Below are positions 38,662-53,523 of a DNA stretch of 64,000 nt, piece after piece (position 1 is the stretch's first letter; each line of letters begins with the position of its first letter). This DNA comes from Verrucomicrobiota bacterium (lineage in GTDB: Bacteria > Verrucomicrobiota > Verrucomicrobiia > Opitutales > Opitutaceae). The stretch covers positions 62,001 through 126,000 of the forward strand of contig JACRQG010000011.1 of the NCBI GenBank assembly GCA_016222805.1, given 5' to 3'. The notes beneath the pieces were generated by a model. That model ran no database searches and had not been told where the DNA came from. It worked only from the letters and a program-made list of their open reading frames with translations. A program made the position numbers and the translations under genes.

Positions 38662-39783
38662 TTAATGGGCGGCGACGCGCCGCACGGAGCCGGGAATCTG
38701 CGGGGCGCCGGTGTCGGCGCTGGCCAGTGCGGCAAAGCAAAGGGCCAGACTGTCGAGGTTGTTGCGCCCGCTGTGGCTCGGCTCGCGGTTCTCTTCGATG
38801 GCGCAGAGCAGTTCCGCCATCGTGCCCTGGAAGCCGTTCGTGAACCAGGTGCCCTCGAGGGCGGCGGTGGCGGTGCCGGCGACGGTGTGGACGGTGACCG
38901 CCTGCTCCGAAAGGCTCGGGCCGGCGCTGCGCAGGGTGCCGGCCGAACCGCAGAGCACGGTGCGGTCCTCCTGGCCATGCAGGACATGCCCGTTAAAGGC
39001 TAGTCGCACCTGTGCGTCCGGAAACTCGATGGCGACCTGCGCGAGCATCGGTGGCCGCGGCTTCTGGAAGGAGGCCCGGGCCACGGAGGCGGTGATCCGC
39101 GAGGGCCGGCGGCCGCGCGTGAGTTCGGCCGCGAGATCGAACCAGTGGATGCCGAAATCAAACAGCACCAGGTGATGGATGGACTCGAAGGGAGTTCCCG
39201 CGGTCCAAGTGTGATCCCACTGGAGCGTGAAGTCGGCACTGGCGAGTTCCCCGATGACGCCGGCGCGAAGCGCAGCCATCAGGTAGGCGAAGTGCGGCGC
39301 CCAGCGGCCGTTTTGGTTGACGGCGAGACGCACCCTCTGCGCCTCGGCCAAATCGGCCAGTCGGGCTCCGTCATCGAGATCGAGCACGAAGGGCTTCTGG
39401 CTGAGCACGTGTTTGCCGGCGCGCAGGGCGGCCTCGATGGCGACGGCCCGCTCGCGCGGGTGGAGGGCCAAGTCGACGACCTCAAGACCGCGGTGGCGCA
39501 GCAGCGCCTGGTAATCCGAATACACGGTCGCGCCCGGATAGAACTCGGCGCGGCGTTTCTCGGCGCGGCCGGCATCGACGTCACAGAGCGCGACCACGTC
39601 GAGTCCCAAGGCCCGGTAGGCGCGGAGGTGGTACTCGGAGATTCCGCCGCAGCCGACCAGGCCGATCGGCGGGCGGTAGGAGCGGGGCAGGCGAGGAAGG
39701 TACGGCAGGGCCGGCGCGGAAGCGATCCCGGCCGCGGAGGTGGAGGCGAGACCGTAGGTGCCGGAAGTGGACGGGGAACTCAT
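38662..39783 (-). CDS. Gfo/Idh/MocA-family oxidoreductase
   Basis: A 373-residue cytoplasmic oxidoreductase. The Rossmann motif IGLVGCGGISEYHLRAYRALG (40-60) comes after an unusual Ala/Ser/Pro-rich lead of about 38 residues. LSQKPFVLD carries the family's KP motif, and GIHWFDLAAELT the catalytic-region His. The family oxidises or reduces sugars, inositols and related compounds with NAD(P). The gene lies 25 bp after the next Gfo/Idh/MocA gene (39809-40879) and 24 bp before the broken sulfatase, in one probable transcript. The substrate is not predictable; the pair may act on related intermediates. Confidence 0.85.
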   Translation of the reverse strand: MSSPSTSGTYGLASTSAAGIASAPALPYLPRLPRSYRPPIGLVGCGGISEYHLRAYRALGLDVVALCDVDAGRAEKRRAEFYPGATVYSDYQALLRHRGLEVVDLALHPRERAVAIEAALRAGKHVLSQKPFVLDLDDGARLADLAEAQRVRLAVNQNGRWAPHFAYLMAALRAGVIGELASADFTLQWDHTWTAGTPFESIHHLVLFDFGIHWFDLAAELTRGRRPSRITASVARASFQKPRPPMLAQVAIEFPDAQVRLAFNGHVLHGQEDRTVLCGSAGTLRSAGPSLSEQAVTVHTVAGTATAALEGTWFTNGFQGTMAELLCAIEENREPSHSGRNNLDSLALCFAALASADTGAPQIPGSVRRVAAH

Positions 39784-39808
39784 CGGGGGAGGTGGGAAAG
39801 GTGCGGGC

Positions 39809-40879
39809 TCAGGGGAGGAGCGGGACCGTCTTTCCGCGTTTCGCGCTCAGCACGGCGGAGTCGACGATCTGCTGGCCGATGCGGGCGATCTTGGGCGATA
39901 GCGGACCTTCGGGCGGCAATCCTTCCCGGATGCAGTGGGCGAAGTACTGGATGGGGTTCTGGAACGGGGCTTGCAGCGCATCGACGGCGATCTCCTCCCC
40001 CCGGGGATGGGCGCGGGTTTGGACGCGAATGGTGGGTTCGTAGTCGTAGGAACTGATCGTGCCGTCCTCGCCCTTGAGGACGAAACCGCACTTCGGCTGC
40101 GGCTGGGTGATCCAGGGATCCGTGAAAGTGCCCCAACGGGTTTCGAATTTCGAGAGACCCGAGGCGTAGCGGGCGATGGTGATGCTGTGTTCATCGACCT
40201 CGAGGCCCCGGGGGCGGTCGACGACGGCGGTGACGTCCAGCGGCTTGCGCCCGTCATGGAACCAGGTCCCGAGGGTCGTGCCGTAGCCGAGATAGTCGAG
40301 CAGGGAGCCTCCTCCCCGGGCCTGCTTGTAGAACCAGCTCGCGCGCTTCATCGCGGGCGTGGGCGTGGTCTCGATCTTGTCGGCGGTGTGCCAGAGGGGC
40401 CCCCGGTTGCCGTCGTAGTAGTGCACTTCCTGCAGCGCGCCGATGCGTCCCTCGCGCACCAACCGATGGGCGGTGACGTGACTGGCGACCCACCGCAGCG
40501 GCCAATTGATGGCCAGGAGGCGCCGGGCTTTCCGGGCGGCGGCGATCATCCGATCCGCTTCGGCGAGGGTCGCGGCGAAGGGTTTCTCCACCAGCAGGTG
40601 CACCCGGTAGGGTGCGACGAGTTCGACGTACTCGGCATGTCGCGCGGTGGCGGGGCAGAGAATGACGAAATCGGGTTCGGTGGCGGCGAGGCAGCGGTGG
40701 GGATCGGTGAAGACGCGGGAGGCGGGAATCCCGAAATTGGCGATTGCCGCCTGCATGCGCCCGGGCTGGTCGTCGCAGATGCCGGCGATCTCGATCTCCG
40801 GGTGCTCGTGGCACTGGCGGAGGAGATCGCCCATGTGCATGTGATCGAAGTTCAGGCCGACGACTTTCAGTTTCTTCAT
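39809..40879 (-). CDS. Gfo/Idh/MocA-family oxidoreductase
   Basis: A 356-residue cytoplasmic protein from the ATG at 40879, preceded by the pyrimidine-rich leader TTTCCCACTGCCCCTCCCC. The nucleotide-binding end is divergent (LKVVGLNFDHMHMGDLLRQC) and lacks the usual GxGxxG glycines, having GLNFDHMH. LLVEKPFAATLAEADRM carries the EKP motif, and SLLDYLGYGTTLGTWF replaces the common G.H..D segment. So either cofactor binding is modified or this is a distinct subfamily. Positioned between the phosphotriesterase-like gene (46 bp) and a second oxidoreductase (25 bp). Confidence 0.82.
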   Translation of the reverse strand: MKKLKVVGLNFDHMHMGDLLRQCHEHPEIEIAGICDDQPGRMQAAIANFGIPASRVFTDPHRCLAATEPDFVILCPATARHAEYVELVAPYRVHLLVEKPFAATLAEADRMIAAARKARRLLAINWPLRWVASHVTAHRLVREGRIGALQEVHYYDGNRGPLWHTADKIETTPTPAMKRASWFYKQARGGGSLLDYLGYGTTLGTWFHDGRKPLDVTAVVDRPRGLEVDEHSITIARYASGLSKFETRWGTFTDPWITQPQPKCGFVLKGEDGTISSYDYEPTIRVQTRAHPRGEEIAVDALQAPFQNPIQYFAHCIREGLPPEGPLSPKIARIGQQIVDSAVLSAKRGKTVPLLP

Positions 40880-40925
40880 GGGGAGGGGCAGTGGGAAATG
40901 GGAGGTGAAGCCGATCCTGGCGGCA

Positions 40926-41882
40926 TCAGGCGGCTCGGGCGAAGGCGTAGGTGCTGGCCGGCGTGGCGAGGAGGACGCGCGACAGCAGCTCGTCGGACAG
41001 GCCGGCGGCCCGCAGCTCGGGCACAAAGGTCTCCAGCAGGAAGACCAGCCCGGGGGCTCCACCGTACGACCGCCAATAGCTGCGCCGGGCGGCGTCCATC
41101 CCGAGCATCAGCTGGTCGGGAAACTCCGGCAGGAGGGCGAGCAGCAGGTCGCGCGTGGGGTTGCCGCGCTCCGCCGGCCAGCGGAAGGCGCTGTCGTATT
41201 CGAGGCGCACGCCGGTGGAGAGCACCTCGCGATGGTAGCCGGGGTCCGGCCGGCGATCGACATGGGAAAGGCAGACATGCCGCAGATCCACCCCGAGTTC
41301 GCGGAGGCGAGTCGCCTGTTCGAGGGCGAGTTCGCCTTGCTCCGTGTGAGTGAGGATGGGGCAGCCGGTGCGGCAATGCGCCTCGGCGGCGGCGGCCAGG
41401 AGCTTCTCGTCGCGCGCCGTGAACTGTCGTTCCGTCGCCACCTTGATCACCCCGGCGCGATGCGGAGTGCGGCGCACCACCGGAGCACCGTAGTCGAAAG
41501 CGTCGACGCCCTCGGTGATGTCGGCGACGAAGAGCGCCGCGAGCTCCGCCGCACCCAGGGTTTCGCCCCAGTGGCCCGGCGGGTAGTATTTCGCGAGGTG
41601 CAGGCCGGTGGGGCAGATCAGGTGCACGCCGCTCCGCCGCGAAACCTCGGCCAGCCGCAGGATGTCGCGCCCACTGTCGCACGGCATGGAGTCGACCATC
41701 GCGCCACCGCCGGCCCGGCGAAAGTCGGCCAGTTCCGCGGCCGCGCGATCGACATCGTCGAGAAGGAACTCCGGGCAGACATGGGTCGTGAAGCTCGGCC
41801 CGATGATCACGTGTTCATGGGCGTAACACCGGCCAAGCTGCGCGGGCGTGATGTCGCTGAGGACGGTGCGAACGAAGGTCAT
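40926..41882 (-). CDS. Phosphotriesterase-family metal-dependent hydrolase (lactonase-like)
   Basis: A 318-residue amidohydrolase-fold protein from the ATG at 41882. All binuclear-metal residues are visible: CYAHEHVII (HxH), AGVIKVATE (carboxylated Lys), ILTHTEQGE (His), CLSHVDRRPD (His), LMLGMDAARR (Asp). Bacterial relatives of phosphotriesterase such as Bh0225 and Lmo2620 are sugar-lactone-phosphate hydrolases, so a lactonase role is a fair inference; phosphotriester cleavage is unlikely to be its natural role. The start overlaps the stop of the UlaG-like gene as ATGA, so the two are translationally coupled and may open related lactones. Confidence 0.83.
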   Translation of the reverse strand: MTFVRTVLSDITPAQLGRCYAHEHVIIGPSFTTHVCPEFLLDDVDRAAAELADFRRAGGGAMVDSMPCDSGRDILRLAEVSRRSGVHLICPTGLHLAKYYPPGHWGETLGAAELAALFVADITEGVDAFDYGAPVVRRTPHRAGVIKVATERQFTARDEKLLAAAAEAHCRTGCPILTHTEQGELALEQATRLRELGVDLRHVCLSHVDRRPDPGYHREVLSTGVRLEYDSAFRWPAERGNPTRDLLLALLPEFPDQLMLGMDAARRSYWRSYGGAPGLVFLLETFVPELRAAGLSDELLSRVLLATPASTYAFARAA

Positions 41883-42718
41883 GACCGCGCGGTGAGCGTG
41901 ACGCGCTCGCCGGCGCGCGGGATGAGGCAGGGCTGGCCGAGGCGCGCACACTCCGCGGCGAACGCAACCGGGGACGCGGTGTTGAACTCGAACATCTCGT
42001 AGTGACAGGGCACGGCGCAACCGGCCCCGATCGCGTAGGCCAGGACGGCGGCTTCGACACCGTCGAGGTTCCCGGCCACGCGGCGCTCGGGGGCGCGGCC
42101 ATTGATCGGGAGGAGCGCCAGGTCGACCATGAAGGGTCGCAGCCGGCCGCTCATCCCTGGAAAAAGCACGGTGTCGCCGCTGTGGTAGATCCTGAACGGA
42201 CCCACCGTGACAACAAAGCCGGCATAGCCCGGAGAGAGTTCCTCGTGGGCGGCGGGGACGGCCTCGAGCGTGAACCGGCCGACCTCGACCCTCGCGTTTT
42301 CCGCCACGGGGACAAGGCGTGGACGGAGGGCTTCCCCCAGCCGCTGGGCGGCGAAATCGAGGTTGGCGGCAGGGAGGACGAGTGGCGCCGTCGGAGCCGC
42401 GGCGAGCAACGGGAGAAGCGTGGCGGCGTCGAGATGGTCGGTGTGGTTGTGGGAGGAGGTGACGATCTTGACGAAGCCGAGGCGCGCCGGATCCACCACC
42501 CGAGCCGTCAGTCGAACATGCGGCTTGTCGGTGCCGGCGTATTTCTCGGTGAGCGAGTCGGAGAGATACGGGTCGAAGAGGAGACAATCTCCCTCGTGGC
42601 AGACCAGGAACCCGCTCTGGCCCAGCCACCAGAAGTCGAGACGCTCCCGGGCGGGATCGGCCCGCACCGCGGCGACATCAGCGAGAAAGAAGTCGTCCTG
42701 AAGGATTGGTTGGATCAT
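41879..42718 (-). CDS. UlaG-like MBL-fold hydrolase
   Basis: A 279-residue cytoplasmic metallo-beta-lactamase-fold protein. WWLGQSGFLVCHEGDCLLFDPYLSDSL opens the fold; SSHNHTDHLD is the HxHxDH metal motif; VPAAHEELS, YHSGDTVLFPGM and VPCHYEMFEFN complete the site. This arrangement is that of the UlaG branch, whose founding member is L-ascorbate-6-phosphate lactonase. The end overlaps the next gene's start by four bases (ATGA). A sugar-lactone hydrolase within an oxidative sugar pathway is the best inference. It lies 84 bp after the MetE-like gene. Confidence 0.85.
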   Translation of the reverse strand: MIQPILQDDFFLADVAAVRADPARERLDFWWLGQSGFLVCHEGDCLLFDPYLSDSLTEKYAGTDKPHVRLTARVVDPARLGFVKIVTSSHNHTDHLDAATLLPLLAAAPTAPLVLPAANLDFAAQRLGEALRPRLVPVAENARVEVGRFTLEAVPAAHEELSPGYAGFVVTVGPFRIYHSGDTVLFPGMSGRLRPFMVDLALLPINGRAPERRVAGNLDGVEAAVLAYAIGAGCAVPCHYEMFEFNTASPVAFAAECARLGQPCLIPRAGERVTLTARS

Positions 42719-42802: not shown

Positions 42803-43840
<1,038 letters not shown>

Positions 43841-44006: not shown

Positions 44007-44891
44007 TCACACCCGGGCCGGGAAGATCGGCCGCAGGTAGTCGAGGTCGTACTTGATGCTCGGTTCGACGCCGAGGGGGGTTTTGACGCCCTCGATGCCG
44101 AGCCAGCCGCGATAGCTGGCGGCATCGAGCGCGGCGCGGACGCCGGGGAAGTTGATCGAGCCCTTGCCGTAGAGGTCGTCGTAGTCCTTCAGATGAACCT
44201 CGCAGATCCGTTCGTGGCCCAGGCGGCGGATGGCGGCGCCGATGTCCTCGCCCACCTTCTGCATGTTGCCGACATCGTAATAAACCCGGATGGCGGGGGA
44301 GTTGACGGCGTCGAGGATCCGTTCGAGGACCGGGGCCTTCAGCCAGGATTCGATGCCGTAGACGACTCCCGCGGCTTCGGCGTGCGGCGCGAGCTTCTTC
44401 AGCCGCCGGATCACCTCGGTAATGCCGGGTTCGTCATCGACGAGATCGCCCTTGCTGAAGAACGCGAGCAAGGTGACGCGCTGCTTCAGCCGTTGCATCA
44501 CCCGCACGCTGTCGAGCACCCACTGCTCGGTGGCGGGATCGCTCTTGTAGGGGACGGAGTTGAGCACGCCCATCGCCAGGGAGGCGATCGCGACCTTCTG
44601 CTCGGCCGCCGCGGCCAGGATCTTCTCCTGGTGAGCCTCATCGAAGAGCGGCAGGCGGGTTTCTCCGGGCTTGAGCCGGCCAAAGTCGACCTGCACGCCG
44701 TCGAGACCGATGCGGCGGGCCACGGAAAAGGAATCGGGGTGGCACGTTTTCTGAAGGGTCCAGTCGCAGGCGAAGATCTGGAAACCGGCCGGCGACGCCT
44801 TGGGTGCCGCCCGAAGCGACCGCCAGGCGGTCGCCGTGGAGGCGAGCAGGCAGGAGGTTTTGAGGAACGAACGGCGGGAGGGGAGGTGCAT
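44007..44891 (-). CDS. Tat-exported sugar phosphate isomerase/epimerase-type (AP_endonuc_2-like) TIM barrel
   Basis: A 294-residue protein. The N-terminus SRRSFLKTSCLLASTATAW is a twin-arginine signal, so the folded protein is probably exported. The barrel shows LDGVQVDFGRLKPG, VLNSVPYKSDP, VVYGIESWLK (metal Glu), VYYDVGNM, ICEVHLKDYD (His/Asp), and GWLGIEGVKTP (Glu), the xylose-isomerase-like TIM metal site of the sugar phosphate isomerase/epimerase family. Periplasmic members are common in Verrucomicrobia and Planctomycetes; substrates unknown. Flanked downstream by the heptamer arrays and upstream by GC-rich palindromic repeats. Confidence 0.83.
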   Translation of the reverse strand: MHLPSRRSFLKTSCLLASTATAWRSLRAAPKASPAGFQIFACDWTLQKTCHPDSFSVARRIGLDGVQVDFGRLKPGETRLPLFDEAHQEKILAAAAEQKVAIASLAMGVLNSVPYKSDPATEQWVLDSVRVMQRLKQRVTLLAFFSKGDLVDDEPGITEVIRRLKKLAPHAEAAGVVYGIESWLKAPVLERILDAVNSPAIRVYYDVGNMQKVGEDIGAAIRRLGHERICEVHLKDYDDLYGKGSINFPGVRAALDAASYRGWLGIEGVKTPLGVEPSIKYDLDYLRPIFPARV

Positions 44892-45060: not shown

Positions 45061-46293
45061 TCAGGTTTGCAGGCCGGAGAGATCGACCTGGAGTTTCTTC
45101 TTGGAGGAAAGGACGTCGTTCCAGGTTATGGTGCGTTTTTCATAGGCGGCCATGCGACCCATGATTGCGACGAGGTTGCTGGTGATGCTGGGTTCGAGGG
45201 TCGGATTCCGGGTGTCCTTGGCGAGGACCTGCTCGTGGAACGCCTTGATGTTGGCGACGGCGCCGTCCTTGTAGATCGAGGTGGTCATGCCGCCGCGGTA
45301 GAAGTCGTCCGCCTTGGCGCGGACCATCACCTGCCCGCCGTACTTGCTGGAAAACACGCCCTTGGTGCCGAACATCCGGTTGATGATGCCACCGGGTTCG
45401 CCGAAGGAGTCGTACTGGCGGGAGCTGAAGGTGATGCCGACATTGTTCGGGTACTCGTACATCAGCGCGAAGTGGTCCCAGCAGTCGCCGACATCGATCC
45501 GGGAGCGCCGGCCGCCCGTGCCACTGCAACGGACGGGAGGGCTGTCCTTCATCACCCAGCTCATCACGTCGAGGGTGTGGATGTTCTGCTCGACGATGAT
45601 GTCGCCGGACAGCACCTGATCGAAGACCCAGTTGTAGAGCAGCGTTTCCTTCGCCGAGAGTCCGGCCGGGGCCTTGGCCTTGAGGCGGTCGGAATGGTAC
45701 ACGGCCTCGCCGAAGCAATATTCGCCGAGCTGGCCGGCGTGGAGGCGGCGCAGCGCCTCGATGTAGAACTCGTTCGCGCGCGTCTGGAAGTCGACCAGGA
45801 AGACCCGCCCCTGCTTGCCGGACAGGCGCCCGTCGGCGGCGATGGAATTGACGCTGGGCACGTCCACGGCCGGCGGCTTGGCGAGGTAGACGTGCAGCTT
45901 CGCGGCGACGGCCGCCTTCACCTGTTGGGGATGGAAATAGGGCGGACTGATGATGGCGACGGCGTCGACGCCGCCCGCGGCGACCAGCTTCTCGCCGCAC
46001 TGAAGGCCAGTGAAGCCGCGCACGCCGGTCAGCTTGTTCTTCGTGATCGACTCCTGGATCCGCGCGTCGAAGTAATCGGCCAGGGCGACGATCTCGTAGC
46101 CGCCGTGAGCCTTGAACAAATCCGTGATCCAGGAACCACGGCCGCCGCAACCGATGACGCCGAGGCGAATCCGGGAGTTGGCGGCCGAGCCCTGGGCGGT
46201 GGCCCGGCGGAGCGTGGCGGCGCTGGCGACGCCGAGACCGGCGGTGGCGAGGAAACGCCGGCGCGAGGTGGAGGGAGCTTGGGGAGTTTTCAT
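45061..46293 (-). CDS. Tat-exported Gfo/Idh/MocA-family oxidoreductase
   Basis: A 410-residue protein with a twin-arginine signal (SRRRFLATAGLGVASAATL). Rossmann motif IRLGVIGCGGRGSWITDLF (42-60), VYLAKPPAVDVPSV with the KP motif, and IIVEQNIHTLDVMSWVM with the family's N.H..D segment. Tat export allows NAD(P) to be bound before translocation, as in glucose-fructose oxidoreductase. Exported members of this family include alpha-N-acetylgalactosaminidase GH109-like enzymes, so a glycosidase-like redox mechanism is possible. It follows the FAD oxidoreductase gene by 57 bp. Confidence 0.85.
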   Translation of the reverse strand: MKTPQAPSTSRRRFLATAGLGVASAATLRRATAQGSAANSRIRLGVIGCGGRGSWITDLFKAHGGYEIVALADYFDARIQESITKNKLTGVRGFTGLQCGEKLVAAGGVDAVAIISPPYFHPQQVKAAVAAKLHVYLAKPPAVDVPSVNSIAADGRLSGKQGRVFLVDFQTRANEFYIEALRRLHAGQLGEYCFGEAVYHSDRLKAKAPAGLSAKETLLYNWVFDQVLSGDIIVEQNIHTLDVMSWVMKDSPPVRCSGTGGRRSRIDVGDCWDHFALMYEYPNNVGITFSSRQYDSFGEPGGIINRMFGTKGVFSSKYGGQVMVRAKADDFYRGGMTTSIYKDGAVANIKAFHEQVLAKDTRNPTLEPSITSNLVAIMGRMAAYEKRTITWNDVLSSKKKLQVDLSGLQT

Positions 46294-46350: not shown

Positions 46351-47760
46351 TCATGGCACGGTGGAGGCGCCGCGGGAATTCGGAAGTGGCGACGCCCGCC
46401 AGTCATCGCGGCCGGTTGGGGCGGGGCCTTCCGGCGTTTCCAGCACCGCGCCCTCCGACCGCAGGCAATCCTGCAGTGTCCCGATGGGCACCTCACGCGC
46501 GCCGCAGTTTGCGGTCAGGGAAAGCGCCGCGGCGGTGCCGGCGGCCTGACCCATCGCCATCGTCTGGGCCATCGAACGGCAGGAGGCGTGGGCATCGTGC
46601 GTGGCGCTGAAACAGCGGCCGGCCACCCAGAGTTCGTCCCGGCCGCGTGGCACCAGGGTGCGATAGGGGACATCGTACGCCGCGCCACCGGGGACGTAGG
46701 CCCAGGCGGTTTCCTCCCCTCCGGTCGGAGCCTCGCGGTGGTCCTCGATCGGGGCTCCGCAGAGGAGCACGCGATCGGGAAAGCGCGCCACGCCGAGGCA
46801 ATCCTCCCGCGTCAGGCGGTACTCACCGTGCACGCGCCGCGTCTCGCGCACGCCGATCTGGTGCGACAGCCCGATCAGCCCGGCCTCGCGGAAGCCGGGC
46901 ACCTGCTCGCGGAAGAACTGCTCGTAGACGAAAGCCTGGCGCCGCCCTTCCTGTTCGGCCCGGGTGAGGCCACGCGCGTCGGTCGCGTCGATTCCGGCCA
47001 CGCGCACGGCCACCGTGGAAACGCAGCCGGGGACGTTCATCGCGTGCAGACTGCCGGATCGGCGGGGCAGCGGATGGGTGCCCGCTTCGACGACGGCCGT
47101 CATGCACTCCCGCAACCGGCGGTTGCCGCCGGCGGCGGCGTACGCCGCGAGGTCGACGTTGGCGAGGCGGAAGGTGGTGGTAAGCGTCTGGGCCGGCTCC
47201 CGTTCGCCGGCGCGCTCATACGGGACGTCGGCCCAGTGGCAGAGGTCGGCGTCGCCGGAGGCGTCGATGAAGCGGCGGGCACGCAGGCGGAAGAAGCCCT
47301 GCTTGGAAAAACAGACCGCGGCCGTGAGCCGCCCGGCGGCATCGGCATCGACGCCGACGAGGATCGTGTGCAGCAGCAGGTCGACCCCGGCCTCGGCGAG
47401 CAGCTCATCCCAGACCAGCTTCAGGCGCTCCGGCTGGTAGTTGACCCCGGTGCCGGCGCCGTAGGTGTTGGGCCGCAGGAAGACCGCACCGGCGGCGTGC
47501 AGGCGATCGACCACGCGGTCGGGGAGGCCGCCGACCACCTTCCGCGGCGTCTGGCCCGGGGTGAAGAAACCGTAGAAGGTGTCGAGCATCTGCGTCGACG
47601 TGCCGCCGGCGAAGCCATAGCGCTCCACGAGCAGGACGCGCTCCGCGCCGTGCCGGCGGGCGGCGAGCGCGGCGCAGCAGCCGGCGCTGCCGGCGCCGAC
47701 GACCAGCACGTCGGCCTCGGCCAGGACGGGTACCCGCTCGAGCAGCAAGGGTGCCTTCAT
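46351..47760 (-). CDS. FAD-dependent oxidoreductase (FAD_oxidored type)
   Basis: A 469-residue cytoplasmic flavoprotein. ADVLVVGAGSAGCCAALAARRHGAERVLLVER (16-47) is the dinucleotide fold, with GGTST next. FIDASGDADLCHWADVPYE and CRSMAQTMAMGQAAGTAAALS close the FAD site. PF12831-type enzymes oxidise diverse small molecules and are frequent in sugar loci without a known reaction. The ATG (47760-47758) overlaps the stop of the SIS gene as ATGA; it is the last of five chained genes. Electron acceptor and substrate unknown. Confidence 0.84.
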   Translation of the reverse strand: MKAPLLLERVPVLAEADVLVVGAGSAGCCAALAARRHGAERVLLVERYGFAGGTSTQMLDTFYGFFTPGQTPRKVVGGLPDRVVDRLHAAGAVFLRPNTYGAGTGVNYQPERLKLVWDELLAEAGVDLLLHTILVGVDADAAGRLTAAVCFSKQGFFRLRARRFIDASGDADLCHWADVPYERAGEREPAQTLTTTFRLANVDLAAYAAAGGNRRLRECMTAVVEAGTHPLPRRSGSLHAMNVPGCVSTVAVRVAGIDATDARGLTRAEQEGRRQAFVYEQFFREQVPGFREAGLIGLSHQIGVRETRRVHGEYRLTREDCLGVARFPDRVLLCGAPIEDHREAPTGGEETAWAYVPGGAAYDVPYRTLVPRGRDELWVAGRCFSATHDAHASCRSMAQTMAMGQAAGTAAALSLTANCGAREVPIGTLQDCLRSEGAVLETPEGPAPTGRDDWRASPLPNSRGASTVP

Positions 47761-48557
47761 GAACCGGACGAACCCTGCTCCGGGCCCACCGTCGCATACA
47801 GCCGCGCGAGACGATGGGCGTGTTCGTCGTAGGCGGACTCGAAGAGCGAGTTGGCGCGCGCGGAGCCGACGATCACTCCCGCCGTGAGCACCTTGGGCGG
47901 ATGGCCGGCTGCCGTGAGCCGGGCGGCCACCTCGGCCTTGAGCGCGTTGACCACCAGGCAACCGCCGACGGTCGAGCCGGGGGAGACCGGCGTATCCAGG
48001 CCGTCGATCGTCACCATCGCGTCACCGATCGGGGCCCCGGTGTCCAGGACGAGGTCGGCGAAGTCCGTGAGTTTGCGCCCGTCGCTGCGGCGGGAGGTCG
48101 AGGCGGCGGCGTGGGCCTGGCTCACGAGGGCGACGACCCGCACCCCGCGCCGGCGGAACTGCTCCGCCATTTCGATCGGCACGACGTTGCACCCGCTGGA
48201 GGAAATGACGAGGGCGGTGTCGCGGGGATCGAGCGCGTAGTTGCGGAGGATGCGTTCGGCGAGGCCGGGGACGTTTTCCAGGAACATCGCCTGGCGCTGG
48301 CCGTTGGCGCCGACGACCAGGTTGTGGAACGAGAGGGAGAGCTCGACGATGGGGTTGAAACCCGGGAAGGACCCGTAGCGGGGCCACATTTCCTCCACCA
48401 TGATGCGCGAGTGGCCGGAGCCGAAGACATGCACCATGCGCCCGGCGAGAATCGTGGCGGCGAACCAATCGGCGGCCTGGGCGACGGAGTCGAGTTGCTG
48501 CGCGGTGCGGTCGAGGAGGGCGCGGGCGCGGGCGAAGTACGTTTCGGCAGGTGTCAT
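47757..48557 (-). CDS. SIS-domain sugar isomerase-like protein (second of two in operon)
   Basis: A 266-residue cytoplasmic protein. VHVFGSGHSRIMVEEMWPRYGSF (43-65) and ALVISSSGCNVVPIEMAEQFRRRGVRVVALVS (115-146) form the sugar-phosphate-binding SIS fold, with the GxGHS loop and the Ser-rich phosphate loop. SDGRKLTDFADLVLDTGAP is shared with the paralogue at 50685. It resembles the sugar isomerase domain (UPF0309-type) proteins that bind phosphosugars. Both its ends overlap neighbours by ATGA, linking UROD-family and FAD genes. Probably isomerises or senses a phosphorylated amino or keto sugar. Confidence 0.84.
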   Translation of the reverse strand: MTPAETYFARARALLDRTAQQLDSVAQAADWFAATILAGRMVHVFGSGHSRIMVEEMWPRYGSFPGFNPIVELSLSFHNLVVGANGQRQAMFLENVPGLAERILRNYALDPRDTALVISSSGCNVVPIEMAEQFRRRGVRVVALVSQAHAAASTSRRSDGRKLTDFADLVLDTGAPIGDAMVTIDGLDTPVSPGSTVGGCLVVNALKAEVAARLTAAGHPPKVLTAGVIVGSARANSLFESAYDEHAHRLARLYATVGPEQGSSGS

Positions 48558-49792
48558 GTGGGAAGGGGATGGGCGAGGGCGGTGTCGAAGAGCGCCATGA
48601 TGTTCTCAGGCGGCACGTTGGCCTGGAGATTGTGCACGGAGGCGAAGACGTGCCCGCTGCCGCGCTGGAAGCAGTCGAGGTTGGCGCGCACCTCGGCCGC
48701 GACCTGCGCCGGCGTGCCGCGGGTGAGGGTGCCCTGGCAGTCGCAACTGCCGCCCCAGAAGACGAGCCGATCGCCGAACTCGGCCTTGAGGCGGCGCGGG
48801 TCCATGCCGGCGGCCGTCGTCTGCACCGGGTTGAGCAGATCCACCCCCATTTCGATGATCGACGGCAGGAGCGGCACGAGCGCGCCGTCGGAGTGCAGCA
48901 GGACTTTCCAGGAGGTCCGCGCGTGCACCCAGTCGAGGCCGCGTTTGTAGGCCGGCAGGAGCAGCTCGCGAAACGCCCGCACGGAGAGAAACGGGGCGTG
49001 CTGGGTGCCGAAGTCATCCGCGATCTGCAGCACCTGGATGCGGTCCCCGACCGCGCCGTGAAACGCCTCGAGGTTCTCGATCCACGCGTCGGTCAGCTTG
49101 CGATAGAGCGCCGCCACATACTCGGGCTCGCTTGCGAACGTGACCATCCAGTCTTCGAAGCCACCCTGGCCGATGCCGTTGAACAGTTCATACGGAGGCC
49201 CGAGGGCGGCGATTACCGCCCGGTCCGTCGTGCGGTGGAGGCGTTCGGCCTCGGTGCGGTAGTACGCGAGTTCGGAGGAGGAAAGCCGCGGGGGCTCCCA
49301 GGCGTCGAGGTCGGGATGCAGGGCGCCCGGGTATTTTTCGAGGCGGTCGAAATAATACCCGCGCGCGGGCATCTGCGCGATGATCTCGCCGCCGCGACGC
49401 AGGACGAGATCACCGTCCGGAAGGGTCTCGGGCGCGAAGGCGCCCGGCACCTCCACCGCGGTGCCGTCGTGCAGCCGCCAGGGCTTCCACTGTTCGTTGG
49501 GAATCCCAAAGGCCACGGCCCGACGGTTGAGCCCGACACAGTCGGAGCCGAAGCGCGCCGCGATCTCCGGTTCGATTTCCGCCAGCATTTGGAAAAGGTC
49601 GAAGATGCGGGGTGGCGGGAGGGGAGCGGGCGGGGCGGCCGGTTCGCGGGCAGCGAGCGCGGCCAGGTGCGCGCGGAGCGGCGCATAGGCAAAGACGGAG
49701 ATGCCGCTCTGGCGGGTGCCTCCGAAGTCGATCGGGACGCGGTCGACCGGTTCGTGGTGAATCGCGGCCAGGATGCGTTCGCGGGAGGTCAT
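48554..49792 (-). CDS. Uroporphyrinogen-decarboxylase-family protein (methyltransferase-like)
   Basis: A 412-residue TIM-barrel protein from the ATG at 49792. MTSRERILAAIHHEPVDRVPIDFGG is the classic start of URO-D superfamily proteins; QIADDFGTQHAPFLS and FRELLLPAYKRGLDWVHA follow. WKVLLHSDGALVPLLPSIIEMGVDLLNPVQTTAAGMD corresponds to the HSCGN zinc segment of MtaA/CmuA methyltransferases, but the Cys is Asp. GGSCDCQGTL follows. Heme synthesis is unlikely given the context and the missing decarboxylase signature. Members of this group in sugar operons have no known reaction; corrinoid-linked methyl transfer is a possibility. ATGA overlaps at both ends. Confidence 0.82.
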   Translation of the reverse strand: MTSRERILAAIHHEPVDRVPIDFGGTRQSGISVFAYAPLRAHLAALAAREPAAPPAPLPPPRIFDLFQMLAEIEPEIAARFGSDCVGLNRRAVAFGIPNEQWKPWRLHDGTAVEVPGAFAPETLPDGDLVLRRGGEIIAQMPARGYYFDRLEKYPGALHPDLDAWEPPRLSSSELAYYRTEAERLHRTTDRAVIAALGPPYELFNGIGQGGFEDWMVTFASEPEYVAALYRKLTDAWIENLEAFHGAVGDRIQVLQIADDFGTQHAPFLSVRAFRELLLPAYKRGLDWVHARTSWKVLLHSDGALVPLLPSIIEMGVDLLNPVQTTAAGMDPRRLKAEFGDRLVFWGGSCDCQGTLTRGTPAQVAAEVRANLDCFQRGSGHVFASVHNLQANVPPENIMALFDTALAHPLPT

Positions 49793-50688
49793 GCGATTAC
49801 GCCGGCCGCATGGGCGGCGGCGCCGAGGGCGCCGGCCCCGTCCCCGAGGGTGGCGGGCACGACCGGTACGCGGTGGCCACCCGGCCGCCACTCGATGCGA
49901 TCGAGTTCGGCCACGAGCGGCACGAAAAGGGCGTCGCCGGCCTGGGCGATGCCTCCGCCCAACACGATGACCTCGGGATCGAGGATGTTGATCGCGGAAC
50001 CGAGCGCGAAGGCGAGGGCGCGGACGGAATCGAGCCAGAGGCGGGTGGCCCCGGCGTCGCCCGCGCGGTGGGCGGCGACCAGGTCGGCGGTGCGGGTGAA
50101 ACGGCCCGCACTGCGGGCGGCCAGCGTGCACTCGCCGATCATCGTCTCGATGGCCCCCGGCATGCCGACGATGCTCGCGGGGCCATCGGGGTTGAGGGAC
50201 AGGTGCCCGAGGTGTCCGGCGCGTCCAATGGCGCCACGCAAGAGGCGGCCATCCGCCAGCACGGCACCACCGACGCCGGTGCCCAGCGTGAGCATGACGA
50301 CATGGCGCCGGCCGCGGGCCGCTCCCACCCAGACCTCGCCAAGCAGGGCGGCGTGGGCGTCGTTGAGCACCGGGACGAGCGCGGATCGACCGAGGGCATG
50401 GGTCCAGTCGATCCCGGCGAGGCCGGCGAGTTTGCCGGGCAGATGGGCGATGCTGCGCCCGTCGGCAGCGGCCAGTCCCGGGGCGCAGACGCCGACCGCG
50501 GTGGGCGCGGAGCCAAGGCGCACGGAGAAGTCGTCAAGCGTGGCACGCGCCAGCCGCACCCAGTCGGCGGGAGTCGCCGTGCCATCGCCGGTGGCCGCGG
50601 AAAGCCGGTGCAACACCGCCCCGTCGGGCGTCACCGCGACGGCCTTGACGTTGGTGCCGCCGATGTCGATGCCGGCGGACCAGGTCAT
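49789..50688 (-). CDS. ROK-family sugar kinase-like protein lacking the zinc cysteines
   Basis: A 299-residue protein from the ATG at 50688. WSAGIDIGGTNVKAVAV (phosphate 1), VPVLNDAHAALLGE (catalytic Asp region), MLTLGTGVGGAVL (phosphate 2) and PEVIVLGGGIAQAGDALF (adenosine) are present. The ROK zinc motif, GH followed by CxCGxxGCxE, is GHLSLNPDGPASIVGMPGAIE: the His and terminal Glu stay, but the three cysteines are Ser, Val and Ala. It should still phosphorylate a sugar or amino sugar with ATP. Both ends overlap neighbours by ATGA, so product and substrate are probably shared with the SIS proteins. Confidence 0.86.
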   Translation of the reverse strand: MTWSAGIDIGGTNVKAVAVTPDGAVLHRLSAATGDGTATPADWVRLARATLDDFSVRLGSAPTAVGVCAPGLAAADGRSIAHLPGKLAGLAGIDWTHALGRSALVPVLNDAHAALLGEVWVGAARGRRHVVMLTLGTGVGGAVLADGRLLRGAIGRAGHLGHLSLNPDGPASIVGMPGAIETMIGECTLAARSAGRFTRTADLVAAHRAGDAGATRLWLDSVRALAFALGSAINILDPEVIVLGGGIAQAGDALFVPLVAELDRIEWRPGGHRVPVVPATLGDGAGALGAAAHAAGVIA

Positions 50689-51464
50689 TGATAAAGATGC
50701 GCCAGGCTGCGCCGGTAACCTTCGTAGTAGGCCTCGAGCTGCTCCTCGGCGGCGTGCGCGGTCGGGGTGCCGACAAACTGGTGGCTCGGCAGCATCACGG
50801 GAGTGTGGCCGCGCTGGAGGAGGCGCGCCGCGGTCTCGCAGCGCAGCATGTTGATCAGCATGCCGCCGGTGACGGTGGACGTGGGGCCGGTGCGCCAGGC
50901 GAGGCCGGGCAACTCCACCACGCAGTCGCCCGGCGGGCACTGGTTGTCGAGGACGATGTCGGCGAGATCGATCAGCTTCCGTCCGGAGGAGTGGTTGGGT
51001 TTGGACTGCGAGCAGTGGGCGACCGACACGACGCCGATCACCGGCAGGCCGCGGGCCTTGGCCCCGGCGGCCATCTCCACAATCAGCGGGCGGATGCCCG
51101 AGGTCGAAATCAGGATGAACGCGTCGTGGGGACCGAACTTGAATCCTGAGAGCAACTGCTCGGCGTAGCCTTCGACCTTCTCGAGGAAGAGCGGCCCGCG
51201 GAGACCGTTCATGCCGAGGGTCGCGCAATGCTGCGAGATGGCGGCCTCGGCCCACGCATAGAAGCCCACAAAGCAGCCCTGCCGCGGCGTCATTTCCTCG
51301 CACATCATCCGCGAGTGGCCGGCCCCGAAGAGGAAGATCAGGCCGCCTTGGGCGATGCGATCGGCGCACAGGTCCGCGGCGCGCTCGATGGCGGGAAGCT
51401 GGGTCTCCCGCAGGCGGGCGAGCAGTTGCTGGGTGCGGTCGTAGTAATCGGCGGCGGCGGACAT
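50685..51464 (-). CDS. SIS-domain sugar isomerase-like protein (first gene of five-gene chain)
   Basis: A 259-residue cytoplasmic protein. LIFLFGAGHSRMMCEEMTPRQGCF (42-65), AFILISTSGIRPLIVEMAAGAKARGLPVIGVVS (115-147) and SSGRKLIDLADIVLDNQCPPGD match the UPF0309-type SIS proteins. It is a paralogue of the gene at 47757, sharing the same segments in the same order. The leader before the ATG at 51464 is almost pure pyrimidine. It opens the chain SIS-ROK-UROD-SIS-FAD joined by four ATGA overlaps. The 148-bp space upstream contains a heptamer array next to the SDR stop. Confidence 0.85.
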   Translation of the reverse strand: MSAAADYYDRTQQLLARLRETQLPAIERAADLCADRIAQGGLIFLFGAGHSRMMCEEMTPRQGCFVGFYAWAEAAISQHCATLGMNGLRGPLFLEKVEGYAEQLLSGFKFGPHDAFILISTSGIRPLIVEMAAGAKARGLPVIGVVSVAHCSQSKPNHSSGRKLIDLADIVLDNQCPPGDCVVELPGLAWRTGPTSTVTGGMLINMLRCETAARLLQRGHTPVMLPSHQFVGTPTAHAAEEQLEAYYEGYRRSLAHLYQ

Positions 51465-51543: not shown

Positions 51544-51620
51544 CGGTGATCAGTAGTCAGTTTCCAGTAATCAGTGTTCAGTAATCAGTGATCAGTGGGC
51601 GGTGAGCGGTGGTCAGCCGG
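51544..51620. repeat. CAGTNNT heptamer array at the 3' end of the SDR gene
   Basis: Eleven consecutive 7-mers in register: CGGTGAT, CAGTAGT, CAGTTTC, CAGTAAT, CAGTGTT, CAGTAAT, CAGTGAT, CAGTGGG, CGGTGAG, CGGTGGT, CAGCCGG. The SDR stop codon (51613-51615) lies inside the array, so the repeat has reached coding sequence. Confidence 0.8.
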
Positions 51621-52434
51621 GGGGCTGGGCGGGTTTCGGGATTTGGCCCTCGCTGACGCACCAGCCGCCGTCGATGGCCAGCACCTGGCCGGTGACGAAG
51701 CGGGCGGCATCGGAGAGGAAGTAAACCGCCGCGGCGTCGCAGTCCTCCGGTTGGCCGATCCGGCCGCCGTCGAGGGGTTGCTTGGTGGCGGTGAACTGCT
51801 GGATCGTCGCATCGCCCGCGGCGCGCCGGGCCATGGGAGTTTCCACCAGGGCGGGGGCGAGGACGTTGAACCGGATGTTGTGCGGGGCGTAGTAGGCGGC
51901 GGCCGACTTGGTGAAGCCGATGATGGCGGCCTTGGCGGCGGCATAGGCGTGCGTCGCGAAGAACGCCGGGGACGGCGACCAGCCCAGCACGGAGCCCATG
52001 TTCAGTATCGAGCCGCCGCCGCCCCGGGCCAGCAAGGTGCGCACCGCGGCGCGATTGGAGAGGATGACGGAGTGGAGGTTGAGCTCGAGCGTCGCGCGCA
52101 GCCCGTGATCGGTGAGTTCGTGCAGCGGGCCGTCGCCCATCCGGCGGCCGCTGCCGCCCGCCACGTGGTAGAGGCCGTCGAAGCCGCCGAAGCGCTCCTG
52201 CGCCAGCGCGATGGCCGCAGGCGCGTGGGCGGGATCCGTGGCATCCCCGGCCAGCGTGCCGCCGCTCGCTCCCAGGGCGGACGCGGCTTCCGCGGCGTGG
52301 TCCGGGTTGCGCCCGGTGACAATGACCCGGGCGCCGGCGGCGACAGCGGCCTGGGCGGCGGACCAGCCCAGCCCGGTGGTGCCGCCGATGATGACGATGA
52401 CCTTGCCGTCGAGAACCGCGCCGATGCGACTCAT
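51613..52434 (-). CDS. SDR-family short-chain dehydrogenase/reductase
   Basis: A 273-residue classical SDR from the ATG at 52434, which is the start closest to the divergent promoter. KVIVIIGGTTGLGWSAA is the TGxxxGxG-type NAD(P) motif, ILNMGSVLG carries the catalytic Ser, HAYAAAKAAI the YxxxK pair, and FNVLAPALVETPMA the usual loop. The C-terminus (FVTGQVLAIDGGWCV) is standard. First gene of the minus-strand catabolic run, divergent from the GntR/LacI-type regulator with 81 bp between start codons, so it is the likeliest direct target. Oxidises or reduces a sugar or sugar acid; substrate unknown. Confidence 0.88.
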   Translation of the reverse strand: MSRIGAVLDGKVIVIIGGTTGLGWSAAQAAVAAGARVIVTGRNPDHAAEAASALGASGGTLAGDATDPAHAPAAIALAQERFGGFDGLYHVAGGSGRRMGDGPLHELTDHGLRATLELNLHSVILSNRAAVRTLLARGGGGSILNMGSVLGWSPSPAFFATHAYAAAKAAIIGFTKSAAAYYAPHNIRFNVLAPALVETPMARRAAGDATIQQFTATKQPLDGGRIGQPEDCDAAAVYFLSDAARFVTGQVLAIDGGWCVSEGQIPKPAQPPG

Positions 52435-52467
52435 GCCCGGATCGTGACGCCGGCGGGAGGACGCGGC

Positions 52468-52508
52468 AACCATTATTCAATCGCTTTTGCGCAGAAGTGA
52501 TATGATAA
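52468..52508. promoter_or_regulatory. Divergent promoter region
   Basis: AT-rich by local standards. TATGAT (52501-52506) could be the -10 of the regulator gene on the plus strand, only about 10 bp before its ATG, suggesting a very short leader. TTGAATAATGG on the minus strand (52480-52470) offers a -10 for the SDR gene. No strong -35 is visible. Confidence 0.4.
52480..52501. promoter_or_regulatory. 22-bp palindromic operator candidate
   Basis: ATCGCTTTTGCG followed by CAGAAGTGAT is an inverted repeat with 9 of 11 symmetric pairs matching, centred on TGCGCA. Even symmetry around CG, and its place between the divergent regulator and SDR starts, suit a LacI/GntR-type dimer. It overlaps both candidate promoters, which predicts autoregulation and repression of the catabolic genes. 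Confidence 0.6.
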
Positions 52509-52515
52509 CGCGACC

Positions 52516-53523
52516 ATGGCCCGACCCCGCAGCCCCAAGGTCCAGGAAGCGAAGGAGCGCATGATCGCGCGACTTCGGGAGGGCTTTCACCGTCCGGGCC
52601 AGCGATTCCTCTCCAACCGGGCGGTGGCCGAAGCCTTCGGAGTGAGCTACCAGACGGCGCATCGACTGATGGGGGAACTGCAGGCGGAAGGGTGGCTGGC
52701 GCGGGCACCCGGCTCCGGCAGCTTTGTGCCGGGACCGGCGCCGCGGATGCGCGGGGTGGCCCTGGTGTTGCACGAGCGGGCGCGCCGGCGCGGGAGCTTT
52801 GGCGCGCAGTTGCGGGATGTCGTGCGCGAGGCCTTGGAGGAGGCGGGAGTGGAGTGGACCGAGCCGGTGCCGGGGACCGTGGCGGTGGGAACGGAGTGGC
52901 TTCCGGTGTTGTGGGAACAGCCCGAGGCGCTGGCGGCCGTGGCGCGGGAGCGGCGGTTCGCGATCCTGGTGAACGACCGGCCGCCGCCGGGGCTGGCGGC
53001 GACCGTCGTGGACGGACTCGCGGTCGACGATTATTCCGGCGGCGCGGCGGCGGCGGAGATCCTGCGGGCGCGAGGTGCCCGGCTCCGGCTTGCCGTGCTG
53101 GCGGGCCCGGCGGGAGATCCCCGCAGCGAGGCCCGGGTCCAGGGGTTTTGCGCGCACGCCCCGAAGTGCGACGTCATCCCGGCGGGGACCTGGTATGCCG
53201 AGGAGGCCGGTCCCGTCGCGCGACGGCTGGCGCGTCGAGAGTACGAGGCGGTCTTCTGCTGCAACGACCGGCTGGCGGCGGCGGTGGTGGCAGCCGCTGA
53301 CGAACTGGGCTGCCGGCGCCCGGCCCTGGTTGGCTTCGATGATGCGCCTGTGGCGGAGGAACTGGATCTGACCACGATTGCGATCCCCTGGGAACGCCTC
53401 GCCGGGGAGTTGGTGGAGTTGGCGCGGCGACGGCTGGCCGGCGACCTGATGTCGGCCAGCCAGCGGATCTTTTCCCCGCATCCCGTCATGCGGCGCAGTC
53501 ACCTGGCGGTCGGCGATGTGTAA
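52516..53523 (+). CDS. GntR-type HTH fused to LacI-type ligand-binding domain, transcriptional regulator
   Basis: A 335-residue regulator. Residues 10-75 are a winged helix of the GntR type (RFLSNRAVAEAFGVSYQTAHRLMGELQAEGWLARAPGSGSFV). From about 78 onward is a periplasmic-binding-protein-like LacI effector domain: GVALVLHERARRRGSFGAQL, AILVNDRPPPGLAATVVDGLAVDDYSGG, EAVFCCNDRLAAAVVAAADELGCRRPALVGFDDAPVAEELDLTTIAIPWERL. This AraR/GntR-LacI architecture regulates sugar genes in several phyla. It is divergent from the SDR gene with a palindrome between them. It probably represses the 34-52 kb run and is relieved by a sugar or sugar acid. Confidence 0.87.
   Translation: MARPRSPKVQEAKERMIARLREGFHRPGQRFLSNRAVAEAFGVSYQTAHRLMGELQAEGWLARAPGSGSFVPGPAPRMRGVALVLHERARRRGSFGAQLRDVVREALEEAGVEWTEPVPGTVAVGTEWLPVLWEQPEALAAVARERRFAILVNDRPPPGLAATVVDGLAVDDYSGGAAAAEILRARGARLRLAVLAGPAGDPRSEARVQGFCAHAPKCDVIPAGTWYAEEAGPVARRLARREYEAVFCCNDRLAAAVVAAADELGCRRPALVGFDDAPVAEELDLTTIAIPWERLAGELVELARRRLAGDLMSASQRIFSPHPVMRRSHLAVGDV

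What the first reader, a model, noticed from the sequence alone, without database searches (positions are those of the whole stretch)
38662..53523. Candidate undescribed catabolic locus for an unusual sugar or glycoside
From 52434 down to 38662 thirteen intact genes in a row lie on the minus strand, followed by a broken sulfatase and a TonB receptor, and the run ends at a divergent GntR/LacI-type regulator. Seen: SDR, SIS, ROK, UROD-family, SIS, FAD oxidoreductase, exported Gfo/Idh/MocA, exported isomerase/epimerase type, MetE-like, UlaG-like, phosphotriesterase-like, and two more Gfo/Idh/MocA genes. Known: the families act in sugar oxidation, lactone hydrolysis, phosphorylation and isomerisation. 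Inferred: one pathway. I know of no characterised pathway with this set of enzymes.
Basis: partly seen in the sequence, partly recalled or inferred. Interest (0 to 1): 0.78.

Follow-up and report, generated by a model that had tools for sequence, protein, structure and literature searches.

The report
Widespread uncharacterised sugar-breakdown gene cluster
A run of thirteen genes in a bacterium of the Verrucomicrobiota is a real gene cluster, found in part in several other bacterial phyla, that most likely breaks down an unidentified modified sugar and oddly carries a methyl-transfer-type enzyme that goes with it in most genomes we checked.

Summary
In detail: thirteen intact minus-strand genes (38662-52434), a frameshifted sulfatase, a TonB receptor and a divergent GntR/periplasmic-binding-type regulator. 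Parts of a smaller core (SIS, MetE-like, SDR, ROK kinase, UlaG-like, Gfo2/Gfo3) lie beside SIS1 orthologues in other phyla. UROD, FAD, PTE and the exported Gfo1/epimerase pair come and go; the sulfatase and TonB receptor have no close counterpart in those 19 loci. The SIS proteins are of the NagS/UPF0309 family and keep its four essential residues, but SIS1 lacks two substrate contacts. The MetE-like protein keeps the zinc and homocysteine site of methionine synthases. Among 288 phylum genomes it and SIS2 occur in the same 7, unlinked in three; MetH is present in 13 of 13 genomes tested. Best reading: a patchily spread, apparently undescribed oxidative phosphosugar pathway with a dedicated zinc methyltransferase. 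The substrate is unknown; a methylated sugar is the boldest reading left open.

The parts
52516..53523 (+). divergent GntR-type regulator with periplasmic-binding-protein domain
   Evidence: Pfam PF00392 + PF13377; counterpart in 7 of 19 related loci at 46-70% identity
52498..52508 (+). conserved site TGATATGATAA in the divergent promoter region (operator or extended -10)
   Evidence: invariant in the 7 regulator/SDR intergenic regions aligned; the 10-mer occurs in 10 of 161 loci held, at or next to the regulator start, some being duplicates of one contig; one match in the window, where 0.29 is expected at up to 2 mismatches, so the window alone proves nothing
51613..52434 (-). SDR oxidoreductase
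   Evidence: PF13561/PF00106; Tyr 45/45, Lys 45/45, Ser 43/45
50685..51464 (-). SIS1, PRK02947/UPF0309 sugar-phosphate SIS enzyme
   Evidence: NF002805 248 bits, cut-off 135; H50 R61 E95 D180 each 83/83
49789..50688 (-). ROK sugar kinase with altered sugar motif (HxGH for ExGH)
   Evidence: PF00480; motif alignment of 51 rows
48554..49792 (-). URO-D/MtaA-like protein (accessory)
   Evidence: PF01208; in 3 of 19 related loci
47757..48557 (-). SIS2, second PRK02947 SIS enzyme
   Evidence: NF002805 277 bits; the same four residues, located by motif, 17/17
46351..47760 (-). FAD-dependent oxidoreductase (accessory)
   Evidence: PF12831; 5 of 19 related loci
45061..46293 (-). Gfo1, exported Gfo/Idh/MocA oxidoreductase (accessory)
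   Evidence: PF01408/PF22725; twin-arginine N-terminus; 6 of 19; AKP in 11 and EKP in 3 of 14 rows
44007..44891 (-). exported ketose-3-epimerase-like TIM barrel (accessory)
   Evidence: PF01261; Foldseek best matches UlaE and tagatose 3-epimerase, model pLDDT 75.5; metal ligands E181 D206 H233 E267 6/6; 5 of 19
42803..43840 (-). core MetE-like zinc homocysteine methyltransferase candidate
   Evidence: PF01717; H219 C221 E253 C314 and S13 E62 D183 each 48/48
41879..42718 (-). UlaG-like metallo-beta-lactamase-fold hydrolase
   Evidence: PF12706/PF13483; seven metal-site residues each 26/26
40926..41882 (-). phosphotriesterase-family lactonase candidate (accessory)
   Evidence: PF02126; closest solved 3pnz and 3msr; metal ligands 13/13; 5 of 19
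39809..40879 (-). Gfo2 oxidoreductase
   Evidence: PF01408; EKP motif 15/15; 9 of 19
38662..39783 (-). Gfo3 oxidoreductase, QKP in place of EKP
   Evidence: PF01408; QKP 13/13; 9 of 19

Best explanation
The thirteen genes are a conserved catabolic module for a modified sugar. Shown: gene content, order, co-occurrence, intact catalytic sites, one conserved divergent promoter region. Inferred: the sugar is oxidised (SDR, Gfo2/Gfo3; in some strains also outside the cytoplasm by the exported Gfo1 and ketose-epimerase-like protein, and by the FAD enzyme), lactones formed are opened by the UlaG-like and PTE-like hydrolases, the product is phosphorylated by the ROK kinase, and the SIS enzymes then carry out an aldose/ketose isomerisation or NagS/MurQ-like dehydration on the phosphosugar. 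The MetE-like zinc enzyme is a dedicated partner of that chemistry and most likely moves a one-carbon (methyl) group from an intermediate to homocysteine or another thiol. The order of the steps and the substrate are not shown.
For: Synteny in 19 related loci, none at 45% identity or more in 14 control loci. SIS1 orthologues in records titled as six or seven phyla; in these 80 loci (flanks up to 10 kb) MetE is present in 45, SDR in 50, ROK in 25 and UlaG in 22 at over 100 bits. MetE-like and SIS2-type in exactly the same 7 of 288 genomes, unlinked in three; 12 of 12 sampled SIS1 genomes outside Verrucomicrobiota have a MetE relative. Distances of SIS1 correlate with those of SDR 0.72, ROK 0.84, Gfo2 0.75, UlaG 0.45, and only weakly with MetE 0.30 (no permutation of 999 reached any of these). 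Catalytic residues kept. PTE closest to 3pnz/3msr. A ketohexokinase-type kinase (PF25270) stands in the kinase slot in L145, so a kinase step is kept though the family changes. Other lactonase families lie a few genes from SIS1 (PF10282, L076) or from MetE (PF08450, L148).
Against: No enzyme of the set has a characterised orthologue close enough to fix the substrate. No aldolase, enolase-type dehydratase or other C-C cleaving family was hit among the thirteen genes, so the route to central metabolism is open (an enolase-family gene lies about 8 kb from SIS1-ROK in L050). In two Rhodothermales genomes the MetE relative (47%) lies away from SIS1-ROK, beside a UlaG-like gene in one. A MetE orthologue is absent from 3 of 16 relatives with SIS1 or SIS2 (G002, G014, G032; G014 is 86% complete). 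The MetE/SIS1 distance correlation is the weakest of the eight computed. Of the 7 co-occurring genomes five are one family and three one genus, so independent cases are nearer four.
Confidence: 0.6

Rival explanations
1. Amino-sugar route: the SIS enzymes are NagS/MurQ-like and handle an N-acetylhexosamine 6-phosphate, with ROK as N-acetylhexosamine kinase.
For: Solved relatives of SIS1/SIS2 include NagS SCO4393; the four essential NagS residues are kept; the second-best NCBIfam match of ROK is N-acetylmannosamine kinase, though far below cut-off (98 of 283 bits); a third PRK02947 copy in this genome lies by a BcrAD/BadF-type kinase; an amidohydrolase-family gene follows SIS1-ROK in L060; the broken sulfatase matches SGSH_C.
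Against: NagS Ser91 corresponds to Leu in 83/83 and Asn228 to Gln in 81/83 SIS1; the NagS paper found homologues of 25.7, 33.2 and 35.7% identity inactive or nearly so on GlcNAc-6P (PMC12680351, passages); no NagA-type deacetylase family among the thirteen genes, and a NagB-like gene seen by one related locus only (L035; neighbours of the others were not all scanned); MetE is left unexplained.
Confidence: 0.15
2. Two pathways side by side: a conserved SIS-kinase-SDR-MetE-UlaG-Gfo core, and an unrelated exported keto-glycoside unit (Gfo1, epimerase-like, FAD, UROD) inserted into it.
For: Gfo1 in 6, epimerase in 5, FAD in 5 and UROD in 3 of 19 related loci, against SIS2 17, ROK 15, SDR 13, MetE 12; gaps of 57-169 bases flank Gfo1 and the epimerase, while five other junctions overlap by 4.
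Against: UROD overlaps ROK and SIS2, and FAD overlaps SIS2, by four bases here; no second regulator inside the run; accessory genes sit in the same slots in the relatives that have them; FAD and PTE relatives also lie by SIS1 in other phyla (9 of 80 loci each).
Confidence: 0.2
3. Ordinary known oxidative sugar pathway (fucose, rhamnose or arabinose type) with an unusual set of paralogues; MetE-like is a housekeeping methionine synthase that happens to be next to it.
For: In one relative (L046) an alpha-L-fucosidase-family gene, a sodium symporter, a small protein that looks like a mutarotase (not scanned) and an SDR lie downstream of the cluster.
Against: MetH over its cut-off in 13 of 13 genomes tested, so no gap to fill; exact co-occurrence with SIS2 in 288 genomes even when unlinked; no sugar-acid dehydratase or aldolase family among the thirteen genes.
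Confidence: 0.05

Closest known systems
NagS (SCO4393) GlcNAc-6P dehydratase, UPF0309/PRK02947 SIS family
   Same: Family and the four residues essential in NagS (His, Arg, Glu, Asp)
   Different: Two NagS substrate-contact residues differ in SIS1; different gene neighbourhood; NagS is described as limited to Streptomycetaceae (PMC12680351 abstract)
Core (folate-independent) methionine synthases MesA-MesD
   Same: Single catalytic domain, zinc ligands H-C-E-C and homocysteine-binding Ser/Glu/Asp
   Different: Well below the NCBIfam methionine synthase models it hits (NF003317 188 of 406 bits; NF006589 121 of 392); tied to a sugar cluster; MetH also present; no corrinoid-protein family among the thirteen genes. 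The paper's own family cut-offs were not applied
PTE-family phosphosugar lactonases (3pnz; 3msr/3ovg)
   Same: Best solved matches of the PTE gene (159 and 157 bits, next 117); metal ligands kept
   Different: Substrate pocket not tested; the activity of those entries is recalled, not read here
L-ascorbate (Ula) pathway, UlaG and UlaE
   Same: UlaG-like fold with full metal site; UlaE is the best fold match of the exported epimerase-like protein
   Different: UlaG model NF008688 25 of 306 bits; no UlaD/UlaF-type gene among the thirteen; epimerase-like protein has a twin-arginine signal
Gfo/Idh/MocA plus TIM-barrel C-glycoside enzymes (DgpA, DgpB-C)
   Same: Gfo/Idh/MocA next to xylose-isomerase-like barrel; DgpB-C at rank 9 of fold matches; DgpA among the Gfo2 matches
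   Different: 12% identity to DgpB-C; ketose epimerases match better; the pair is accessory here. The Dgp role is recalled

Membership tests
PRK02947/UPF0309 SIS family | score over curated cut-off | tested here: met
   248 and 277 bits against 135
NagS GlcNAc-6P dehydratase | essential His53, Arg64, Glu94, Asp179 | tested here: met
   83/83 SIS1 and 17/17 SIS2; SIS1 positions from the alignment, SIS2 by motif; essentiality from PMC12680351 sections 9 and 13
NagS GlcNAc-6P dehydratase | Ser91 and Asn228 substrate contacts | tested here: not met
   Leu 83/83 and Gln 81/83 in SIS1
NagS GlcNAc-6P dehydratase | activity on GlcNAc-6P | not testable with these tools
   needs purified enzyme
MurNAc-6P etherase MurQ | score over curated cut-off | tested here: not met
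   SIS1 27.7 of 168 bits; SIS2 not listed
Core methionine synthase (MesA-D) | zinc ligands HCEC and Hcy-binding Ser/Glu/Asp | tested here: met
   48/48 each, placed by motif and spacing; residues as given in PMC7857596 (passages)
Core methionine synthase (MesA-D) | falls in one of the described families by score | tested here: inconclusive
   0 of 8 NCBIfam models listed reached its cut-off; the MesA-D definitions of the paper were not applied
MesD with MesX partner | MesX (PF08908) in the genome | tested here: inconclusive
   0 of 13 genomes, but the control rang nowhere
ROK sugar kinase | family score and catalytic Asp | tested here: met
   PF00480 151 bits, cut-off 22.9; Asn-Asp in 51/51 rows
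ROK sugar kinase | ExGH sugar motif (recalled) | tested here: not met
   Glu in 0 of 51 rows: HxGH in 23 (window group, most Acidobacteriota), TQxSH in 26 and TQxGH in 2
UlaG L-ascorbate-6-P lactonase | metallo-beta-lactamase metal ligands | tested here: met
   7 residues 26/26
UlaG L-ascorbate-6-P lactonase | curated score NF008688 | tested here: not met
   25.1 of 306
PTE family | HxH, Lys, His, His, Asp metal site | tested here: met
   13/13 each
PTE phosphosugar lactonase | phosphate-binding pocket and activity | not tested
   only nearest solved relatives known

The most novel reading that the evidence does not exclude
The module breaks down an O-methylated (or other C1-bearing) sugar without oxygen-dependent or corrinoid demethylation: oxidation and SIS-catalysed isomerisation or dehydration turn the methyl ether into an activated enol ether (a vinylogous ester, as in ascorbate-like reductone lactones), and a new family of core MetE passes its methyl group straight to zinc-bound homocysteine, giving methionine; the UlaG/PTE enzymes then open the lactone. 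That would be a fifth core-MetE family with a sugar as methyl donor, shared by several phyla.
Probability: 0.2. Interest if true: 0.87.

Novelty: new variant of a known kind. Interest (0 to 1): 0.6.

Why it matters
It gives a testable gene set for a sugar pathway shared by several phyla known here mostly from metagenome-assembled genomes, and it ties an orphan methionine-synthase-like zinc enzyme to carbohydrate breakdown. The methyl source of MesD was asked as a question in PMC7857596 (passages seen, answer not read); a sugar-linked core MetE would be a direct new test case. It also adds contexts outside Streptomyces for SIS enzymes of the NagS family.

Tried and rejected
A first reading of the ROK motif as ExGH to RxGH was a misalignment; one search shows HxGH (note 2 has the error; note 3, the correction). 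A sugar-acid substrate argued from that Arg was dropped. 4-O-methylglucuronate was considered (a BD-FAE-type esterase by one cluster and an AXE1-like protein some 5 kb beyond the regulator here; MFS genes by SIS2 in three genomes); no glucuronidase family turned up among the proteins scanned, none was searched for, and the 20 of 177 papers listed did not contain the compound; it stays a candidate only. AlphaFold2 of the URO-D protein failed (pLDDT 40) and was not searched further. The epimerase model rests on 4 sequences. Sulfatase and TonB receptor as cluster members: not supported, 0 of 19 related loci at 45% identity; weaker relatives do lie near (sulfatase 25-33% in L042, L046, L050 and 28% in L145; TonB 27-35% in L035, L040, L041, L044), and sulfatase relatives reach 100 bits in 3 of the 80 SIS1 loci. 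A Pfam scan of all neighbours was planned and not done. Literature: searches aimed at the gene set found no description of it. That covers only the held open-access library. PMC12680351: outline with abstract, sections 9, 12, 13 and passages read; PMC7857596: start of abstract in the listing and passages; the rest listings only.
Full report
What is there. The window is bases 62001-126000 of contig C49 of a 7.9 Mb genome in 51 contigs, nearest in SIS1 to records titled Opitutaceae/Opitutae. Five junctions overlap by four bases; the widest gaps are 148-169 bases. Gfo1 and the epimerase-like protein have twin-arginine-type N-termini. The sulfatase is split over two frames; I cannot tell a real frameshift from an assembly error.

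Is it more than chance. A search of 57 genomes (own plus 56 relatives) with SIS2 found a match at E up to 1e-10 in 34, and one of at least 70% identity in 15, own included. Stretches around the other 14 and around two genomes with only the SIS1 type, and around three further genomes found through MetE, make 19 related loci. At 45% identity or more they hold SIS2 in 17, ROK 15, SDR 13, MetE 12, SIS1 10, UlaG 10, Gfo2 9, Gfo3 9, regulator 7, Gfo1 6, FAD 5, PTE 5, epimerase 5, UROD 3, and the sulfatase, both TonB receptors and the MFS gene of the window in 0. Several contigs end inside the cluster, so these are lower bounds. Order and strand agree in the loci as printed, read by eye. Fourteen control loci around other SIS paralogues, thirteen of about 3.7 kb and one of 19.9 kb, hold none; they are mostly shorter than the related loci (4.9-19.9 kb). 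Of the six MetE-bearing genomes found besides the own, three (G258, G265, G282) are among the 19; the other three, with unlinked genes, are not.

How far it reaches. SIS1 as query in one genome for each of 84,980 species gave 127 relatives, of which the best 80 were kept; seven of them are contigs already fetched for the relatives. Identity is 65-90% across records titled Verrucomicrobia/Opitutae, Acidobacteria, Gemmatimonadetes, Latescibacterota, Rhodothermales/Bacteroidetes and Planctomycetota. At over 100 bits, SDR is in 50 of 80 loci, MetE in 45 (six of these 45 are Opitutaceae-type loci L052-L058), ROK in 25, UlaG in 22, SIS2 in 11, Gfo2 in 10, PTE and FAD in 9 each, Gfo1 8, Gfo3 7, regulator 6, UROD, epimerase and sulfatase 3 each. 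With about one MetE orthologue per genome of some 6 Mb, random placement would give about 0.3 of 80 (my arithmetic). A clustering of ORFs in these loci, labelled with window genes only afterwards, again put ROK (50 loci), SDR (43), MetE (38), an extra Gfo family (19) and UlaG (18) next after SIS. In the loci from Rhodothermales only SIS1 and ROK stand together. The SIS1 tree mixes phylum labels: thirteen label changes where six is the least possible. Nearly identical proteins under Latescibacterota and Gemmatimonadota titles suggest that some labels are wrong, so I claim patchy spread, not proven transfer.

Co-occurrence without linkage. In the same draw of 288 phylum genomes the MetE-like protein (E up to 1e-80) and the SIS2-type protein (E up to 1e-40, all 71% or more), at cut-offs that I chose, each hit 7 genomes, and they are the same 7. 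In G235 and G238 the two genes are on different contigs, and in G247 about 134 kb apart, so this is not only linkage. Five of the seven are one family and three one genus, so independent cases are nearer four. Of 12 SIS1 genomes outside Verrucomicrobiota that I chose by hand from the 80, 12 have a MetE relative: ten at 70-77% identity, two Rhodothermales at 47%. Of 22 relatives chosen by hand, 13 of 16 with SIS1 or SIS2 have a MetE orthologue (66% or more) and 0 of 6 without do; the other genomes were not asked. The three exceptions are G002, G032 and the 86% complete G014. Distance correlations with SIS1 over shared loci were ROK 0.84 (17), Gfo2 0.75 (11), SDR 0.72 (41), SIS2 0.70 (11), FAD 0.70 (9), PTE 0.58 (10), UlaG 0.45 (24), MetE 0.30 (46); permutations as high were 0 of 999 except SIS2 2, FAD 2, PTE 7. 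MetE, the partner I stress most, is thus the least tightly co-evolving of the eight, perhaps because it is so conserved.

Regulation. The divergent region between regulator and SDR carries TGATATGATAA in 7 of 7 aligned loci, though the regulators are only 46-48% identical to the window's in five of the six others. The 10-mer occurs in 10 of 161 loci held, at or next to the regulator start, some of them duplicates of one contig. In the window it occurs once. It could be an operator or an extended -10. No copy upstream of the later genes fits one main promoter but does not prove it.

What the enzymes can do. SIS1 and SIS2 are PRK02947 proteins over the curated cut-off. Their solved relatives include 3cvj (putative phosphoheptose isomerase) and NagS. 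NagS dehydrates GlcNAc-6P; His53, Arg64, Glu94 and Asp179 are essential (PMC12680351 sections 9, 13). All four are kept in 83/83 SIS1 and 17/17 SIS2, while Ser91 is Leu (83/83) and Asn228 is Gln (81/83) in SIS1. So the chemistry is probably of the NagS or isomerase kind on another phosphosugar. SIS1-only and SIS2-only clusters both occur with the same partners, so the two may do the same step. The ROK kinase keeps the catalytic Asp, but in 0 of 51 rows is the Glu of ExGH (motif recalled) present: 23 have HxGH, 26 TQxSH, 2 TQxGH. In L145 a ketohexokinase-type kinase stands in the slot. The PTE is closest to 3pnz and 3msr, which I recall as phosphosugar lactonases. The UlaG-like protein has a full metal site. 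Other lactonase families lie a few genes from SIS1 or MetE elsewhere. The exported barrel has the ketose-3-epimerase metal ligands (ligand set recalled) and UlaE as best fold match; its model has mean pLDDT 75.5 from 4 sequences.

The odd member. The MetE-like protein is about as conserved as SIS1 (mean distance 0.27 for both over 46 loci). It keeps zinc ligands H219, C221, E253, C314 and homocysteine-site S13, E62, D183 in 48/48, matching by motif the core methionine synthases of PMC7857596 (passages). Its closest solved relative is 3rpd, named there as MesD. It is below the cut-off of all 8 NCBIfam models it hits. MetH is over its cut-off in 13 of 13 genomes tested, so it does not fill a gap in methionine synthesis. 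MesX was not found in 13 genomes, but that search had no positive control.

Verdict. A real and conserved catabolic module, not found described in the gene-set searches of the held library, with a well-supported core and variable extras. Steps and substrate are inference. The tie between a NagS-type SIS enzyme and an orphan MetE is the most informative lead.

Noticed in passing
G000:C38:72263-72979 (L135:9752-10480): Third PRK02947 SIS gene beside a BcrAD/BadF-type kinase (PF01869) and an N-formylglutamate-amidohydrolase-like protein; relatives at 29-39% identity are common in the family. May be a separate amino-sugar salvage pair.
   Followed up: partly
window 25404-30341 and L137:2496-11023: Sulfatase-rich contig: three sulfatase-like genes in the window (by sequence look) and five more just beyond it (27-37% to the window's sulfatase), besides the frameshifted one.
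   Followed up: no
G000:C47:84617-88209: MetH appears split here and in several relatives: the N-terminal domain matches a separate adjacent stretch.
   Followed up: no
G000:C50:640237-644353: Extra MetH-like methyltransferase and B12-binding domains, looking like a separate corrinoid methyltransferase system.
   Followed up: no
L038:7356-8615: A nucleoside-H+-symporter-family transporter (PF03825) sits inside the cluster between UlaG and PTE; a similar N-terminus follows Gfo3 in L145 (not scanned).
   Followed up: partly
L145:15629-16705: A glycoside hydrolase family 26 gene and a sulfatase relative follow the cluster in this relative.
   Followed up: no
L146, L147, L148, L151-L153: MetE-like gene near a sugar-type periplasmic binding protein (Pfam checked in L147) and a permease-like protein (by look), and in L148 an SGL-lactonase-domain protein, in three genomes where SIS2 lies elsewhere.
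   Followed up: partly
L154, L155, L156: SIS2 is followed by two MFS-like transporter genes in three genomes; in L154 one also matches the organic-anion transporter model PF03137 (only L154 was scanned).
   Followed up: partly
L120, L122 near 8273-9157: Gene resembling pseudouridine-phosphate glycosidase (by sequence look only) divergent from the SIS1 cluster in Acidobacteria.
   Followed up: no
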